The notes under the pieces are model-generated. The model had not been told where the DNA came from and made no database searches. It saw only the letters and a program-made list of their open reading frames with translations. Below are positions 14,726-31,823 of a DNA stretch of 64,000 nt, one piece after another. The translations under genes and the position numbers were made by a program. Positions within the stretch are counted from its first letter, which is position 1; each line of letters opens with the position of its first letter. The stretch spans positions 186,001 to 250,000 of the forward strand of contig KN834781.1 in the NCBI GenBank assembly GCA_000827265.1, written 5' to 3'. The DNA comes from Collybiopsis luxurians FD-317 M1. Taxonomy: Eukaryota > Basidiomycota > Agaricomycetes > Agaricales > Omphalotaceae.

Positions 14726-15140
14726 GTGAACCGTAGATCTGATGCTGCTGTGAGGTTTATGAATGTAGAATCGCATGGAGAAACTCTCAAATGGTCTTGC
14801 TGAGATTGACGGAGATTTGCAGAAACTGAAGTACAACAAAGTTAGAGGCGTAAAGTTGGTTGCCTCTCTGGAAGAGACGGCTTAGGCATTCTCGAGCTGA
14901 TTGATTGTTACGACCAGTAGGAACGCAAATGTGAACTCGCCAATGTGACGGATTGATTTAATGGTGAAATGCACATTCAGACGAGGGTAATCGAACCAGA
15001 CACGTTGAGACTCCACGAAAGGTGGGAAGGTTCAGATTTAGAGAAAATAAATATTATATGTAGAGTATTGTGGAGGTGTCCTTGTGATGTTGGAATTTGT
15101 ACAGGGATGGTATGCGGAATTGGAATGGTTTTTTTTTTTT
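14726..15140 (+). pseudogene. 3' remnant of an oxidoreductase copy plus its 3' flank
   Basis: Begins with a piece resembling intron 2 of the gene at 5789 (GTAGATCTGATGC), then skips the central exons and resumes at the last exon: RMEKLSNGLAEIDGDLQKL...GVKLVASLEETA with a stop at 14883-14885. About 250 bp of the downstream flank also match the flank of the intact gene. Together with 10205-10345 it looks like one copy split and internally deleted. Confidence 0.75.
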
Positions 15141-15387
15141 TTAAAAGTCTGTATTCTGCTTGTAATCATGGTGTATGACAGTCGAGAGCCGAACTCGCCA
15201 CATCGTCATATTTCAGAGCTTGTGATTGTATCTACATACAGCGTACGTTATCTTTTCTCTGAGTCGAAGCAGGCCTGGGGGCATCAGAGCGCTAATCACG
15301 AACGAAGCATTGACCGTCCCAGCGTCATAGGAACCCTATAGGCGCCTGCAACTGCACTTACCCACCTAGCACTTATAACTTATTTAT

Positions 15388-16075
15388 TAGGCTCGTTCCC
15401 AGCCTGTCTATGACAGCTAACAACAAAATTGTAGCAATGTTTCGTAAAAACGCACCTTAGTGATCTTGTTTATTGTAAACAAAGATGATGACATCTGCTC
15501 CACCATTGCTCCACCCTTGCTCCACTCTTGCTCCACCCAGCATCAACACCTCGTTTGTTTAAAAGCTTTCATCGACTCTTCGAGGTATAAATTATGTGTA
15601 CTTATGTTCCATTATGTGTACATATAGCTTTTACAATACTACATTGAGAGTCACCGAGAAAGAATAGCATGAAATCACTAGAATCCTACCCATTCAGGAT
15701 CCTAGGGGCCTCGCGGCGCTGTGGAGCAAATGTCATCATCTTTGTTTACTATAAACAAGATCACTGAGGTGCGTTTTTTCGAAACATTGCTACAATTTCG
15801 TTGTTAGCTGGAAGGCCGATCAATGAGGGCCTGTCGATAGACAGGCTGGGAGATCTCGGAACTATTTGGGTGGGTGCGCACGGAGTTTGAGTTTTCATTG
15901 CCGGCCGCACACATGATTTGATTGCGTCAGCTAAATTTTTCCATCGTGTATTCATAGCTTTACATTCCTGTTCATATACACGACAACGACTGCGCTCATA
16001 CGCGATTTTTGTCCTCGTATTCCTTCTTTACCAGCTATTAATCAATATCATCAAATTAATTCTCAATTTTATGCG
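15388..16075 (+). repeat. Left terminal inverted repeat (interrupted by a miniature element)
   Basis: Outer part 15388-15414 (TAGGCTCGTTCCCAGCCTG...), then the 395-bp insert, then 15810-16075. It contains the internal palindrome CTGTCGATAGACAG. The inner end is 2-3 bp before the start codon of the DUF6589 gene. Confidence 0.8.
15415..15809. mobile_element. Miniature inverted-repeat element (MITE) nested in the left terminal repeat
   Basis: The arms 15415-15508 (AGCTAACAACAAAATTGTAG...) and about 15716-15809 are near-perfect reverse complements over roughly 94 bp, with about five mismatches, and include GTTTATTGTAAACAAAGATG. The 210-bp centre has no gene; it holds three tandem GCTCCACCCTT-like units near 15500-15540. 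If the inserted unit starts after TA it would be flanked by TA on both sides, as for Tc1/mariner-derived MITEs; that class assignment is a guess. Confidence 0.75.
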
Positions 16076-16077
16076 TC

Positions 16078-18668
16078 ATGAATCCTTATCAGCTTGTACC
16101 AATTCCAGCGGCGTACGGATATCCTTTTCCACCAGTTTATTGGCCTCAAGCTCCAACCTATACTGTAGCATGTGGAGATACTCTTTGCTGGAACTCCCAA
16201 AATCTTACACGAACTCAGAAACTGCTCGAAATTGTTGCTCTCCTTCGCAAAGACTTTCGCATGAGTCCGATGGAATTCCTCCTCGAAACTAGTCTTAGTC
16301 CTCTTGCAGAATTCTCCAAGCTTCGAAAGAAGTTTTTCCAAACTCAAGCAGTGGAGAAATTCCTGAACACTGTTGAATTGGATGCGCGAGGGAAAGAGAG
16401 GTTGTATAACTGGCTAAGGTTCAAAGCTGTGGAGGTTGTCGAGGGCATTGTCTACGAAGAGATGGAGGGTTTACAGGAGGACTTCATGATGAAGATGCAG
16501 GATGTCACTCCTGAATATCTTCTTCATTTCTCTCTCGATGATTACACAAACATCCTTAAGAATAAATCTTCAGTTCTACGATGTATTCTCCAAAAAGCTA
16601 GCCAAACTAATTGAGCAATCTGAGAGAAAAAGAGGAAGTCTAACCAAGATACTGTATGAACTATTCAGGCTTACTATTGTGCAGTTTCCTCATGATTTTT
16701 CAGCTCATTACAATGATACAATCTCAGCTTGCTCATTTTCGCTCTCAAAATAATCTCGCAATTGCAATTCCTTTCGTATTCTTCCTCTTAAGTACAGCTG
16801 CACCTAAACGTGTCATCAACTTGCTCTCAAGTCTCCACTTCACTCCCTCTGTCAAATCACTCTATGCAGCAGAATCAGCTCTCTCTAGCAAGCAAATGAC
16901 ACGTGCTCAGATGTTTGTTCACACTGCTCCTGGCTTTGCTGAAAGCCATGATAACTATCAGCAGATTACATCAGTCCACATTGAACAATGAGACCTACAG
17001 CCGCCCAAGGTTCAAGTTGGTACAACAACAGTTATACTCTCGCTTCGTAATGCTACAAGATCTGCACTTTCACTCAAGGCGATTCTTGAGCGCCAATCAC
17101 TTGGCAAAATCATAACTTACAATGAAGATGTCCACCCTTCTCTCTCCCAATGAGCAGACCTTATTAACCACGCTTGCATCGCTATCTCACAAATTCTCTT
17201 GACACACTCAAAAATGCATTCGTCTACTCTAGCTGCAGAGCCTGAACTCCAGTACAAGTTGTACAGGCCACCTCCACGCAACTACAAAACTTTTGAGTAT
17301 GTTCTTCACACCAGCACTCAATGAAGGAACCATCAACGGCACAATTCAGGTCAATGACAATATCTACTTCAACCAACTTGCACTCGCTCCTTATGATCTT
17401 GACGACCAAGCTGTCCCTTCCTTCCATGATCAGAAAAGCAATGCACTGATTCGTTCAGCACAAAGGTGACATTGGTGCAATCACACAACTCCAACATCAT
17501 CAGTTGGGACTCAGCTGGTTTCATCTTGAGCTAAACCTTGCTTGGTCTATTCATACTATTCATTGAGGAACTTCATCAGATATAGGCTCTCTCCAGTATT
17601 ATATAGCGCTTCTAGGATGAACACAACTAGGAGGTGAAAAACCAGAATTTGAAACCCTAAAGGCACTCTTCATGGACATTCTTGCTGGTCACATTCTTTA
17701 TTACTTTGAAGTTGTGGCTGGAACAGCTATTGAACAGTTTTTGGAATCATCTCCCTCAGCTACTACCCTTTTGGGCTTCTCACGGAAAATTGCAGAAAGA
17801 TTCTTCTTCGACTCTGCTTTGGAGACCGAACATGCAAAATCCTCTGCTGATTTCTCTCCCTGTAACATTATCCTCCTCAATTGAGACCTTCTACTCTTTT
17901 ATCTGGTTACAACTGGAGTATCATCTGGTGATTTTGGGCAATTAGGAATTCTGCTTGGGCTCTTAACCGCTAGGTTTGTGGGTGGTGGTAACAAGAATTA
18001 TGCAACTGAGCTTCTATTCTTCATTCAGCATCTCAAGAAGGTCTAGCCTGAGCAATTTGTGTAAGTCTTGCTATATCTCATGTCGTTTAAGCTTGGCCTG
18101 ACTCCATATAGGAACATCATGTGTGAAAATTCACTCATAAGCACCTCGGGGTGCACCAATCATTACTACAGTGTTGACAAGAACACAGAATTCAACAACT
18201 TTCAGAAGGTTTGTTTTTATCAAATACATGTGCAGAATACTTAGTCAGCGTCATAGACTTATAGCACTTCAAAAGGACTGCATGTGTCATTTGAGAAACT
18301 CAGAAATATCTCACTGAATATTCCTGTTTATTGAAATATCACGCCTCAGTTCAGTGTCATGACTGACAGCGAATGGGTCCAAACTAGTCACTCTGACACC
18401 AACAAAATATCCCACTATCAGAAAAATATATCTCAAAGTACAAGAAAATCAGATTCACAGGGCGTATGCAATGCTCCAAGTACATGATTCAATGACAGGG
18501 AGGATTCATAAGTTACAATGTCCACAGGTGACATGGCCCATGGTTGATACAATGGAAAAAGGGAGGAGTATGTTACAGGATCAATTGTTTTCAGCATGGG
18601 TCAAACGATGGAAGAAATATGTGTCAGGTAATGGAGAATATGCCAGCAATGAAGAGGAGGAAGACTAA
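16078..18668 (+). pseudogene. DUF6589-type protein of a mobile element, frameshifted
   Basis: Role unknown; DUF6589 proteins are multicopy in Agaricomycetes and their link with mobile DNA is my inference. The first 178 residues are open (MNPYQLVPIPAAYGYPFP...) and include LTRTQKLLEIVALLRKDF and MSPMEFLLETSLSPLAEF, followed by DVTPEYLLHFSLDDY. Then the frame shifts repeatedly. Recognisable blocks follow: FRSQNNLAIAIPFVFFLLST near 16740, HQLGLSWFHLELNLAWSIHT near 17500, FETLKALFMDILAGHILYYF near 17650-17710, LLGFSRKIAERFF near 17790, LLFYLVTTGVSSGDFGQLGI near 17890 and NKNYATELLFFIQHLKKV near 17990, the last two matching the DUF6589 core. It ends in an acidic tail (ASNEEEED). It starts directly after the left terminal repeat. 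Confidence 0.72.
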
Positions 18669-18699
18669 GTAATGTAGAGTAAGCTATGGAGAGGGAAAT

Positions 18700-21060
18700 T
18701 CAATGCATCTTATGCATTTTGGTGAGGTAAGAATTGAGCTGAATTCGGAATCTCATAATTGGCGAGCAGTTGGTGTATTTTGGGGTGATGGAGGACCTGT
18801 CGAAATTGGGCTAGAGGGAGGCACAGGGCTACAAGGAGGGATAGGACTGGATCAATATTGTAATGAACTGCAGGATGATGGTCTCAATGAAAAAGCTGGT
18901 GTGACAGGTCTGGGCTGTTGGTTCACCAATTCAGATACTGATCATGCAAAGAACTCTGACTCAGGTGGTTGAGACTGCGCCATATTTGATACTGACCACA
19001 ACATGAATTCATCATCTGAATCTGCCGGTTCTGAGCCATCTTGTACCTGCTGATTCTTTGTTTGTTGGTTTCATTTGAAGGGTGGATTGTTGTTGTCCCA
19101 GTCCCTGATTTGATGAAGAATATCAAGGGCTATCAGCTTGTGCCACTCTTGACTTTGAGAAAGCAAGCGAGTGACATCCTCAGCTGTGGTAAGCTTTCCT
19201 TGTGGTGCCCAGGCTAGCGTAGTGAAATGTGAAGCAGGAAAAAACTCATCAAAAGAAAAGGAATGGAGTATCAGATGGAAATCCCTGACTATACTGCAGA
19301 AGTTTAAGATGATCTTCAAGTAATTTTTGTTCTGGTACAGGACAATATTTATTGGAGACCCAAGGTGCATCTGCCTTAGACGGTAAAGATATGACTGCAG
19401 AGCCAGGAAAAAAGACTGAGAAGTCTATTTCTTCTCCATGGTTATCACAGCACCAATGTGAAGTGTAGTTGAGGCCTAGAAAGATTTCAACACAGAAACT
19501 GAAATTGAATATGGAAACTTATGTTCTTGAGTGTTATCGCCATTGAAATCTGCAAACCATTTGCAACGGCAGCCTTTTGTATGACAGTAGTCAACAACTC
19601 CGAGAGATGTATGCTTCTCCTTTGGCCCTGGCTGATAATTTGAATCCTTAGCGGCAAGATTTTTGACTGCCCATTTCTCTGCAATCAGTAGGACAAGGCA
19701 TTGACAGTTACTGCTTCAGCCAGCTCGCCCTCCCTGCTGATCAATATTGATCTCATCTCTGGGCACACCAAATATGACCACAAACAGAAGCTGCACAACA
19801 TCTATCCCATTTGATGCCATTTCAGTAGCAATGAGTATACGGACTGTGCCATTTGGATTGCAAAAAGATTTGAAGACAATTTTACAACAAAGATTGGAGA
19901 ACCGCGCATGTAAAACCTCAATTGGCTGGAGAATGTGTGGTACTTCAACTGAAAATGGTTTGGTATTGAGATATTCATGTGGGAGTTTAGATACAAGGTA
20001 GTCTCGAATTGTGATAGCAAGAGCTCAGTCGTCAACATAGACAATTCCTTTTTCAAGCAGTGGTATCAGCCTTGGACAACCCATGGGAGGTATTAAGAAG
20101 TCGAGATTCAATAGATTGGTCTGATTGCCGACCATAGGTTTAACTGCATGAATCAAGTTTGGGCAGTTGGTTGAGCATTCAATGTGCCAGGTGTTTTCTT
20201 CACGCATGTGGAGACTGTTCATTGTGATTGAATGAATACGGGGAGTTAAGGAAGCAGAAAAAACAGCAACAGGGGCACTGGACCTAAGCTGAACCTGGAT
20301 AAGATCACCAATCTGCACAAGTATAGGGCAAAAAGCAGGCTCATTTGCATGAGAGTTTCCAGCTGTTTTAATAAAATGAGGTTCATTGTAATTTAGCAGT
20401 GAGATTCATTTGGACCATTTGGATATGTGTAGAAGATGTCAGAATCTTGGTACGTGTGATCCTCCTTGAACTTGTTCTGGTGATAAAGCAAAATGTCGAT
20501 AGGTTGAATGATTTTCAATTTCCTTAAACAAAGTTAGTTATGTGTTATTTGAAGCATTAGCAGTTACATACCTTCCAGTCCTTTGCTGAGAGTTGAGGGA
20601 CTGTATCTCCATTTATGATAATCGACTTGATTCCAAGCTCATTAAACTCTCAGGCCTAAGGAAAGCTAGAACTAAGGGATGTAGAGCAAACCGTTGGACG
20701 TACATGATTTTCTTGAATCAACTTCAGAGGCAAAATGGAAATAATGATCTTGGAAGGGTCTATCAGAGCTGGGAGTGCCATCGCAATAGTCTTCCCACTT
20801 CCACAAGCTGCCCTCAAAGTAACATCTTTCCCGGCTTCAATGCCAAACACCACTTCAAGCTGATGCCTCCTCAGTCCTTTGGTTCCTCCCATGGCACGGT
20901 CCAATGCTAAAAAACTTCTCCACATCAAGCCAATTTCATCTTCTGTGAGCCTAGAGATAAATTCGGTATCTTCCAGTAAGTCCAAGAACTGGGCAGTAGC
21001 TGATTCTGAGAGCGGATACTGGAAAAGGTCATTCCATAGTCTTTCTGAGATTGAGGCCAT
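18700..21060 (-). pseudogene. RecQ-like DEAD/DEAH-box DNA helicase of the mobile element, degenerate
   Basis: ATP-dependent 3'-5' DNA helicase family (RecQ-like). It starts MASISERLWNDLFQ at 21060, right after the right terminal repeat. Motif 0/I region: LRRHQLEVVFGIEAGKDVTL then AACGSGKTIAMALP (Walker A intact, near 20790). Motif II should read DEAH, but the aligned text near 20380-20394 is NEPHFI, so the catalytic box is lost. Motif III is VAVFSASLTP (family SAT). The C-terminal RecA lobe gives LDFLIPPMGCPRLIPLLEKG, RILIATEMASNGMDV and QQGGRAG (motif VI, near 19725). A C-terminal block SHFTTLAWAPQGKLT lies near 19215 and a Ser/Pro tail follows. Several stops and frame changes break it, so it is a pseudogene. 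Confidence 0.82.
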
Positions 21061-21063
21061 TTA

Positions 21064-21326
21064 AATGCATAAAATTGAGAATTAATTTGATGATATTGAT
21101 TAACAGCTGGTAAAGAAGGAATACGAGGACAAAAATCATGTATGAGTGCGGTTGTTGTTGTGTATATGAACAGGAATGTAAAGCTACGAATATGCAATGG
21201 AAAAATTTAGCTGATGCAATCAAATCATGTGTGCGGCCGGCAATGAAAATTCAAACTCCGTGCGCACCCACCCAAATAGTTCCGAGATCTCCCAGCCTGT
21301 CTATCGACAGACTGGGAACGAGCCTA
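21064..21326 (-). repeat. Right terminal inverted repeat
   Basis: Reverse complement of the left repeat with about 13 transitions. It lacks about 25 bp present in the left outer part (the stretch between CCTGTCTATG and CTGTCGATAG), probably a deletion between the two CTGTC words. It ends at CGAGCCTA before the duplicated CTTATTTAT. Confidence 0.8.
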
Positions 21327-21448
21327 CTTATTTATATAGCAAACCTGTACATGAAATGATTTCAGAACTCGCTTACTCAGAAAACTTTAAATGAGATCAT
21401 TCTATCACTCCCGCTCATACTCATACTCAACCTACAGCTTCATGAATC

Positions 21449-22660
21449 ATGGCTAGTACACAGAAAGTTTTATACCTGGAAAAAGCCAAAGGTGCATTTG
21501 TCATGTCTGATGCACCGATTCTCAAGCCCGGTCCAGGGCAGCTATCTGTCAAGGTTATCAGTGCTGCTCTGAATCTGGCCGATTGGAAGATTCAGGCATA
21601 CGACTTTTTCATTACCAAGTATCCTGCTATTTTTGGTGGCGATATTGCAGGAGACGTCGCAGAAGTTGGCAAAGGCATTGAGGGGTTCTCAAAGGGTGAT
21701 AAAGTGTATGTGCTGTTGCCTGTTCATGTTTCCGTGCCTTTGGCAGGCCCTAATGCCTGCTCCAGCTTCTTCAGAGGTTGGTATTCGAATGAATTCGCCG
21801 GCTTCCAGCAGTACACTCTTGTTCCCGCTGATATTGTTGGCAAGGTCAGTGATTTATGTTTGAATATGTACATTCTGAATACATAGGTTTAATGCCAGCT
21901 CAACATTCATGGATGTAGATTCCCTCCAACATCAACTATGACCAGGCCTCTACCATTCCTCTTGCGTTTACTACTGCCGCATTCGGTCTTTTGGGTCCCG
22001 CAGGCACAGCCCTAGACCCCACACTTGAATTCAAGCCCAAGTATTCCAGCCAGCCGGCAGTGGTTTACAGCGGGAGCACCTCCATCAGCCAATATGCCAT
22101 CTAAATTCTCAAACATCTTGGATACAGCAAAATCATCACCTACGCCTCTGCTCACCACTCCAATTTCCTGAGATCACTTGGAGTGACACATGTCGTTGAT
22201 CAAGGGGAGGTCCCTGCGAGTGGGTTCACAGAGGCAGCAAAGGAAATCGCTGGTGCTCCAATTAAACTGGTGTTCAATTTGGTCATCGATGGTGAGGCTG
22301 CAGGTGTTTGTTTGGACATTCTCAACAGAGATGGGCAGTTGGCAGATGTGAATGGAGAGGCGAAGGGTTCCGGCAATGGAAGGAAGGTTTATCTGATCTT
22401 TGGAAACTTGCACCCTCCAAACAACAGGGAGTTTGGTTGAGTGATTTGGATGGCTTTGCCAAAGTTGATACGGGATGGGTTGATTGTGGTGAGTTTACTT
22501 TTTGAAATTGCTTGGCTTTCTGCACTGATGATTTGTGTAGCCCAATCGCATGGAGAAACTCCTGAATGGCCTTGCTGGGATTGATGGAGGATTGCAAAGG
22601 ATGAAAGCCAATCAAGTGAGCAGTGTAAAGCTGGTTGCTTCACTGCAAGAGACAGCCTAA
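21449..22660 (+). pseudogene. Oxidoreductase copy with two nonsense mutations
   Basis: Full-length paralogue of the gene at 5789 with the same four-exon structure (first exon MASTQKVLYLEKAKGAFVMS; last exon ends SLQETA, stop 22658-22660). Two codons are now stops: TAA at 22102-22104 (CAG in the intact gene) and TGA at 22438-22440 (CGA in the intact gene). The nucleotide-binding loop is changed from GGSTSVGQ to SGSTSISQ. All these changes are C:G to T:A. It lies 114 bp right of the transposon's duplicated target site. Either a pseudogene or, less likely, a gene expressed only as an N-terminal fragment. Confidence 0.85.
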
Positions 22661-31437: not shown

Positions 31438-31823
31438 TAGGCCCGTAACCGAGTTGTCTAATGAAGACCTGTCGATAGACAGGCTGGTGGATCTCGTAAC
31501 TATCTGCCAGTGTGTGGGTGCGCACGGAGTTTGAACTTGTCGTCGCAACCATTACTACCTGTGCAACAGCTAGTCTTGGGAACAAAAAAGTACCCATATA
31601 TGTACAGATATTAATTTAATACATAGACTTTCAGTGGATCAAGATCTTGCAAAGATATCGCTCATATCGCTCAATGCGTTTAGTAGCATCAGTGGCAATG
31701 CCGAAGAGCCGTCAGCTGTCAGTGCCACAAATTTCAAACTCCGTGCAAACTACCAGCCTGTACATCGACAGCAAATCGACAGGTCCTCATTAAACCTTCA
31801 TAGACAAGCTAGGTACGAGCCTA
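31438..31823. mobile_element. Short non-autonomous relative of the 15388-21326 element
   Basis: It starts TAGGCCCGTAACCGAG and ends CTAGGTACGAGCCTA, and inside each end it carries the same words as the large element: CCTGTCGATAGACAGGCTGG, then GGGTGCGCACGGAGTTTGAA on the left, and CAAACTCCGTGCAAACTACC with CCTGTACATCGACAG on the right. The interior of about 200 bp has no gene. I see no clean target-site duplication, so it may be an old or rearranged copy. Confidence 0.72.

What the first reader, a model, noticed from the sequence alone, without database searches (positions are those of the whole stretch)
15379..21335. A target-duplicating element that pairs a DUF6589 protein with a RecQ-like helicase
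Perfect 9-bp direct repeats (CTTATTTAT) flank matching ends (TAGGCTCG...CGAGCCTA) and long inverted repeats, so the whole 5.94-kb unit moved as one. It carries no transposase of a class I recognise; instead it has a DUF6589 protein and a RecQ-like helicase. Inference: the DUF6589 protein is the transposase or a recombinase, with the helicase as accessory, and DUF6589 families in mushroom genomes are mobile-element genes.
Basis: partly seen in the sequence, partly recalled or inferred. Interest (0 to 1): 0.9.

Follow-up and report, generated by a model that had tools for sequence, protein, structure and literature searches.

The report
Decayed AcademH-like DNA transposon
This is a decayed jumping gene, probably in a fungal genome, that carries a protein of unknown function (DUF6589) next to a DNA-unwinding enzyme; it looks like a member of an already described transposon type, and it suggests that the unknown protein is the enzyme that moves the element.

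Summary
A 5,939-bp unit (15388-21326) has matching ends and a perfect 9-bp target duplication (CTTATTTAT). It encodes a broken DUF6589 protein (+) and a broken RecQ-like helicase (-), convergent, each starting beside a terminal inverted repeat (TIR). Pfam finds nothing else in six frames. A nested 397-bp repeat splits the left TIR; the right TIR lacks about 28 bp.

It is not a one-off. Of 11 places where both ends of this family were paired, 8 have 9-bp duplications with at most 2 mismatches (6 perfect), against 0 of 110 crossed pairings. One is a 1.77-kb deletion copy keeping the start of both genes. A second element with different ends (C29, 5,568 bp) has the same gene pair and an 8/9 duplication; its 967-bp deletion copy (C28) has a perfect one.

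Helicase plus 9-bp duplication fits AcademH, which I know only through later papers' passages. I file it as probable AcademH: a new member of a known kind. Possibly new is DUF6589 as its transposase ('DUF6589' is in 0 held papers). Neither homology to Academ transposases nor an RNase-H fold could be tested. Two of five DUF6589 loci show no element ends.

The parts
15379..15387 (.). left 9-bp target-site duplication CTTATTTAT
21327..21335 (.). right 9-bp target-site duplication CTTATTTAT
15388..21326 (.). whole element, 5,939 bp including the nested repeat
15388..15413 (+). outer part of the left TIR, cut off by the nested repeat
15811..16074 (+). inner part of the left TIR (15831-16074 pairs with 21067-21310 at 95%; 15811-15812 is the GA repeated beside the nested element)
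21067..21326 (-). right TIR, lacking about 28 bp found in other copies
15414..15810 (.). nested 397-bp inverted-repeat element (90-nt arms, CAGCTAAC ends, flanked by GA); not part of the transposon's own design
16078..18391 (+). broken DUF6589 gene, likely transposase; start codon proposed by eye, 3' end uncertain, Pfam match ends at 18391
19071..21060 (-). broken RecQ-like SF2 helicase gene; start codon proposed by eye, 3' end uncertain
31438..31823 (.). old short copy with the same ends elsewhere in the window; flanks agree at only 5 of 9 letters (by eye)

Best explanation
A cut-and-paste-type DNA transposon, now a fossil, of the AcademH lineage or close to it. The DUF6589 protein is most likely its DDE/D-type transposase: it would bind both TIRs, cut the ends and join them to target strands 9 bp apart, which gives the 9-bp duplication. 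The RecQ-like helicase is most likely an accessory that opens or processes DNA at the ends or at the integration intermediate. Each TIR stops a few bases before a proposed start codon, so the TIRs probably act as mirrored promoters. Short copies were probably moved in trans. Shown: boundaries, duplications, gene pair, a second family with the same pair, deletion copies. Inferred: catalysis, division of labour, promoters, movement in trans, AcademH kinship of the transposase.
For: Perfect 9-bp duplication and inverted ends. 8 of 11 paired places have a 9-bp duplication with at most 2 mismatches, against 0 of 110 crossed pairings. C125 deletion copy keeps the start of both genes. C29 element with different ends, the same convergent gene pair and an 8/9 duplication. 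Its C28 deletion copy has a perfect 9-bp duplication. Pfam shows no other transposase in either element. AcademH makes 9- or 10-bp duplications and encodes a helicase (PMC10045372 passage); DEAD and Helicase_C are attributed to AcademH and KolobokH, and AcademH occurs in Basidiomycota, Ascomycota and Mucoromycota (PMC10799480 passages).
Against: Academ transposase homology and fold are untested. Of five DUF6589 loci, C24 and C133 show no ends in 10 kb; C24's helicase is divergent rather than convergent, and C133 shows none by tblastn. 3 of 11 paired places lack a 9-bp duplication at that register, and the window's short copy agrees at only 5 of 9. No copy seen is free of stops over the whole DUF6589 domain.
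Confidence: 0.8

Rival explanations
1. A superfamily of its own: DUF6589 is a transposase unrelated to the Academ one, and the likeness to AcademH (helicase, 9-bp duplication) is convergent.
For: No Academ sequence was available to show homology; Pfam lists DUF6589 as a family of unknown function.
Against: Helicase with DEAD and Helicase_C, duplication length and presence in fungi all fit AcademH.
Confidence: 0.13
2. A Mutator-like (MULE) element: long TIRs and about 9-bp duplications (recalled traits of MULEs) moved by a MULE transposase, with DUF6589 and the helicase as cargo.
For: Long TIRs and 9-bp duplications.
Against: No MULE or other transposase family of Pfam in six frames of either element; the gene pair recurs with unrelated ends.
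Confidence: 0.03
3. A KDZ element (Kyakuja, Dileera, Zisupton).
For: KDZ elements occur in basidiomycetes (PMC12730594 passages).
Against: KDZ duplications are 8 bp (Zisupton, Dileera) or 7 bp (Kyakuja) in those passages, here 9 bp; no KDZ domain of Pfam reported.
Confidence: 0.02
4. DUF6589 is a tyrosine or other recombinase.
Against: TIRs with a constant-length duplication of varying sequence are a DDE/D signature (recalled); no recombinase family reported.
Confidence: 0.02

Closest known systems
AcademH lineage of Academ DNA transposons (Kojima 2020, Mob DNA 11:15; not held, known here only through passages of PMC10045372 and PMC10799480)
   Same: helicase gene of the DEAD/Helicase_C type, TIRs, 9-bp duplication, two-gene DNA transposon; fungal hosts
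   Different: nothing known to differ; whether the AcademH transposase is a DUF6589 protein was not tested
AcademX lineage
   Same: same superfamily if this is AcademH
   Different: AcademX makes 3- or 4-bp duplications and encodes a nuclease instead of a helicase; no XPG family in either element
Mutator-like elements
   Same: long TIRs, duplications of about 9 bp (recalled)
   Different: no MULE transposase domain found
Kyakuja-Dileera-Zisupton
   Same: basidiomycete DNA transposons of several kb (partly recalled)
   Different: 7- or 8-bp duplications; different transposase families

Membership tests
AcademH | encodes an SF2 helicase (DEAD + Helicase_C) | tested here: met
   criterion from passages (shared there with KolobokH)
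AcademH | 9- or 10-bp target-site duplication | tested here: met
   8 of 11 paired places within 2 mismatches, 6 perfect; C28 perfect, C29 8/9
AcademH | transposase homologous to Academ transposases | not testable with these tools
AcademX | XPG-type nuclease and 3- or 4-bp duplication | tested here: not met
   no XPG family in either element; 9-bp duplications
KolobokH | TTAA target duplication (recalled) | tested here: not met
   duplications are 9 bp of varying sequence
KDZ | 7- or 8-bp duplication and KDZ transposase | tested here: not met
   9 bp; no such Pfam family
MULE | MULE transposase domain | tested here: not met
   no such Pfam family in six frames of two elements; decayed copies could hide a weak match
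Helitron | Helitron replication protein and no target duplication (partly recalled) | tested here: not met
   9-bp duplications; no Helitron domain

The most novel reading that the evidence does not exclude
DUF6589 is the catalytic core of a superfamily of its own: helicase-coupled transposons with 9-bp duplications that resemble AcademH only by convergence, so that a protein family of unknown function would be an unrecognised transposase superfamily.
Probability: 0.13. Interest if true: 0.7.

Novelty: new member of a known kind. Interest (0 to 1): 0.42.

Why it matters
DUF6589 is a Pfam family of unknown function. If it is the transposase of AcademH-type elements, genes annotated 'DUF6589' could be relabelled as transposon genes, and the paired helicase becomes the place to ask why some cut-and-paste transposons need a helicase and what sets the 9-bp stagger. 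The element itself is decayed and of a described kind.

Tried and rejected
Scans of viral contigs and genome contigs with the C12 open frame: 8 and 82 pattern matches, none a relative by tblastn. PDB search with a DUF6589 profile: two chains of an unrelated enzyme, best E 0.043, not believed. MULE, KDZ, Helitron, KolobokH and a recombinase were considered and rejected (see rivals and membership). The nested 397-bp repeat was considered as part of the TIR and rejected because uninterrupted copies exist.

Slips: a filter in my script dropped duplications made of two letters only, which hid AGAGGAGAG at C125; searches show it. Searches translated four loci on the wrong strand; one search used the right one. 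The script did not pair the window's own ends (its right TIR has the deletion); I added that pair by hand. Places: the 30 matches fall at 19 places by my count. I read 18: the window element, its short copy at 31438-31823, and 16 fetched loci (L043-L058); C7:591566 was not fetched. One search left L043, L052, L053, L055 and L057 unpaired and found no end in L045. The short copy at 31438-31823 is not in the count of 11, because saw only one of its ends; by eye its flanks agree at 5 of 9 letters.

Full report
WHAT IS THERE. The unit 15388-21326 (5,939 bp) is bounded by CTTATTTAT on both sides (15379-15387, 21327-21335) and by TAGGCTCGTTCCCAG... / ...CGAGCCTA ends. A blind search for a 9-bp duplication beside 16-bp inverted ends over 15001-21800 returned this one pair (0 mismatches in the duplication, 1 in the ends). 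At 8 bp it returned three pairs inside the inverted repeat, at 10 bp none, and ten shuffles together gave 1 hit at 9 bp. The long inverted repeat 15831-16074 / 21067-21310 is 244 nt at 95%.

WHY THE TWO TIRS DIFFER. Copies elsewhere mostly read TAGGCTCGT(T/A)CCCAGCCTGTCTATGAAGGCC without a break. In the window the left TIR is interrupted at 15414-15810 by an inverted-repeat element (90-nt arms, 94%; ends CAGCTAAC) flanked by GA. It is a separate repeat: a query consisting mostly of it has 33 matches in the assembly, and some of its copies are flanked by TA. The right TIR lacks about 28 bp present in other copies.

GENES. In six frames with X at stops, Pfam (E up to 1) reports only DUF6589 on the + strand (E 7.7e-38, profile 126-410, and a second piece at 0.0032) and DEAD (1.5e-5, just under its cut-off in that frame) and Helicase_C (5.7e-7) on the - strand. 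The DUF6589 frame has an ATG at 16078, with three bases between it and the repeat. The helicase frame has an ATG at 21060, with six bases between it and the right repeat (start codons proposed by eye). The genes converge. Both are broken: the DUF6589 match has 4 TGA, 3 TAG and 1 TAA (some may be intronic) and tblastn needs three frames to cover it. Likeness to RecQ is weak in the window copy (NCBIfam recQ_fam 0.0042; best PDB chain, Bloom syndrome protein, 0.052) and clear in the C29 copy (recQ_fam 2.9e-9; ATP-dependent DNA helicase Q1 2.2e-6).

COPIES WITH THE SAME ENDS. The inner TIR gives 30 matches in the 64.3-Mb assembly (the tool calls such counts lower bounds), at 19 places by my count, of which I read 18. 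Both ends were paired at 11: ten by script and the window by hand. Of these 11, six have perfect 9-bp duplications (window, C125, C84, C93, C7, C45), one has 8/9 (C31) and one 7/9 (C44). Three do not (C110, whose interior holds Ns; C8, where the flanks match over 8 letters shifted by one; C87). Crossing left flanks with the right flanks of other copies gives 0 of 110 pairs with at most 2 mismatches (these pairings are not independent). C125 is a 1,770-bp internal-deletion copy that still holds the first part of DUF6589 at one end and of the helicase at the other. The nine other paired short copies are 323-853 bp and resemble the element at their ends. Longer relatives: C16 (most of the helicase at 90-91%, no end found), C9 (one end plus helicase pieces), and C12 (DUF6589 at 66% DNA identity behind a TAGGCTTG end, 8 of 31 mismatches where the next best site has 15; helicase C-terminus downstream at 44% protein identity; no right end in 10 kb). 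Further DUF6589-like fragments lie at a second place on C12 and on C20; their surroundings were not read.

A SECOND FAMILY. C29 holds a 5,568-bp element with ends CAGACTCC...GGAGTCTG, inverted arms of 45 nt (89%) and 95 nt (83%), and flanks ATGGCATCC / ATGGTATCC (the 9-bp search also returned one pair inside its TIR). Six-frame Pfam shows DUF6589 (1.1e-73) on one strand and DEAD (5.5e-15) + Helicase_C (5.5e-9) on the other, convergent. The only others listed are ResIII (0.0013, below cut-off, overlapping DEAD) and Sod_Fe_N (0.11, not significant). Its DUF6589 is about 20% identical to those of C12 and the window in my alignment. C28 carries a 967-bp copy made of its first 399 and last 565 bases (94% and 91%), flanked by CTCTGTGCA on both sides. 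Two families with different ends thus share the gene pair, its orientation and the 9-bp duplication. That is the strongest argument that the pair is the mobility machinery and not cargo.

RESULTS AGAINST. The PF20231 model has 10 matches at five places: C33, C29, C12, C24, C133. No ends were found in the 10 kb around C24 and C133 (by the duplication-plus-TIR search, by this family's end). C24 has a RecQ-like helicase nearby, but divergent. C133 shows none by tblastn with the window, C29 and C24 helicases.

MECHANISM. Shown: boundaries, duplications, gene pair, recurrence, deletion copies. Inferred: DUF6589 cuts and joins the ends with a 9-bp stagger, the helicase assists, the TIRs serve as mirrored promoters, and short copies were moved in trans. 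Reading motifs by eye is compatible with a DDE/D enzyme: a DN motif (window and C12 HDNY, C24 YDNIN, C29 YDNYD; not found in C133), then (H/G)D in window, C12 and C29 (different or damaged in C24 and C133), then GDxG or GNxG in all five. This is suggestive only; no fold was predicted and no control was run on it.

DECAY. Against C16 the element differs at 270 of 2,854 aligned sites, 246 of them transitions. Against C9 it is 70 of 79 and against C125 84 of 104, but only 307 of 622 against the more distant C12. The close comparisons suggest cytosine deamination; direction of change and mechanism were not tested.

COMPARISON. PMC10045372 (passages) says AcademH generates 9- or 10-bp TSDs and AcademX 3- or 4-bp, and links this to helicase versus nuclease. 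PMC10799480 (passages) attributes DEAD and Helicase_C in transposons to AcademH and KolobokH and places AcademH at low copy in Basidiomycota, Ascomycota and Mucoromycota. PMC8290104 (passages) reports putative non-autonomous Academ elements in a mushroom genome. PMC12730594 (passages) gives the KDZ duplication lengths. The original AcademH paper is not held. 'DUF6589' occurs in 0 held papers; this says nothing about papers outside that library or about Repbase.

VERDICT. A real, decayed transposon; probable AcademH; the useful part is the link from DUF6589 to a transposase.

Noticed in passing
window 15414-15810: Nested 397-bp inverted-repeat element (90-nt arms, ends CAGCTAAC) in the left TIR; many copies in the assembly, some flanked by TA, here by GA.
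   Followed up: partly
window 31438-31823: A second, older short copy with the same ends; its flanks agree at 5 of 9 letters by eye.
   Followed up: partly
window 15388-21326 against L045 (C16), L043 (C9), L044 (C125): Differences between close copies are mostly transitions (246 of 270, 70 of 79, 84 of 104), and several in-frame TGA in the DUF6589 gene look like former TGG codons: a sign of cytosine deamination.
   Followed up: partly
G000 C99, C19, C121 (L069 for C121): XPG_I matches with in-frame stops, possibly remains of AcademX-type elements; only C121 was read, and no transposase was identified there.
   Followed up: partly
L041 5101-8421 (C24): A DUF6589 gene and a RecQ-like helicase lie next to each other but divergent, with no element ends found in 10 kb.
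   Followed up: partly
L039 2185-3360: Open frames that look, by eye, like a retrotransposon polyprotein just left of the C29 element.
   Followed up: no
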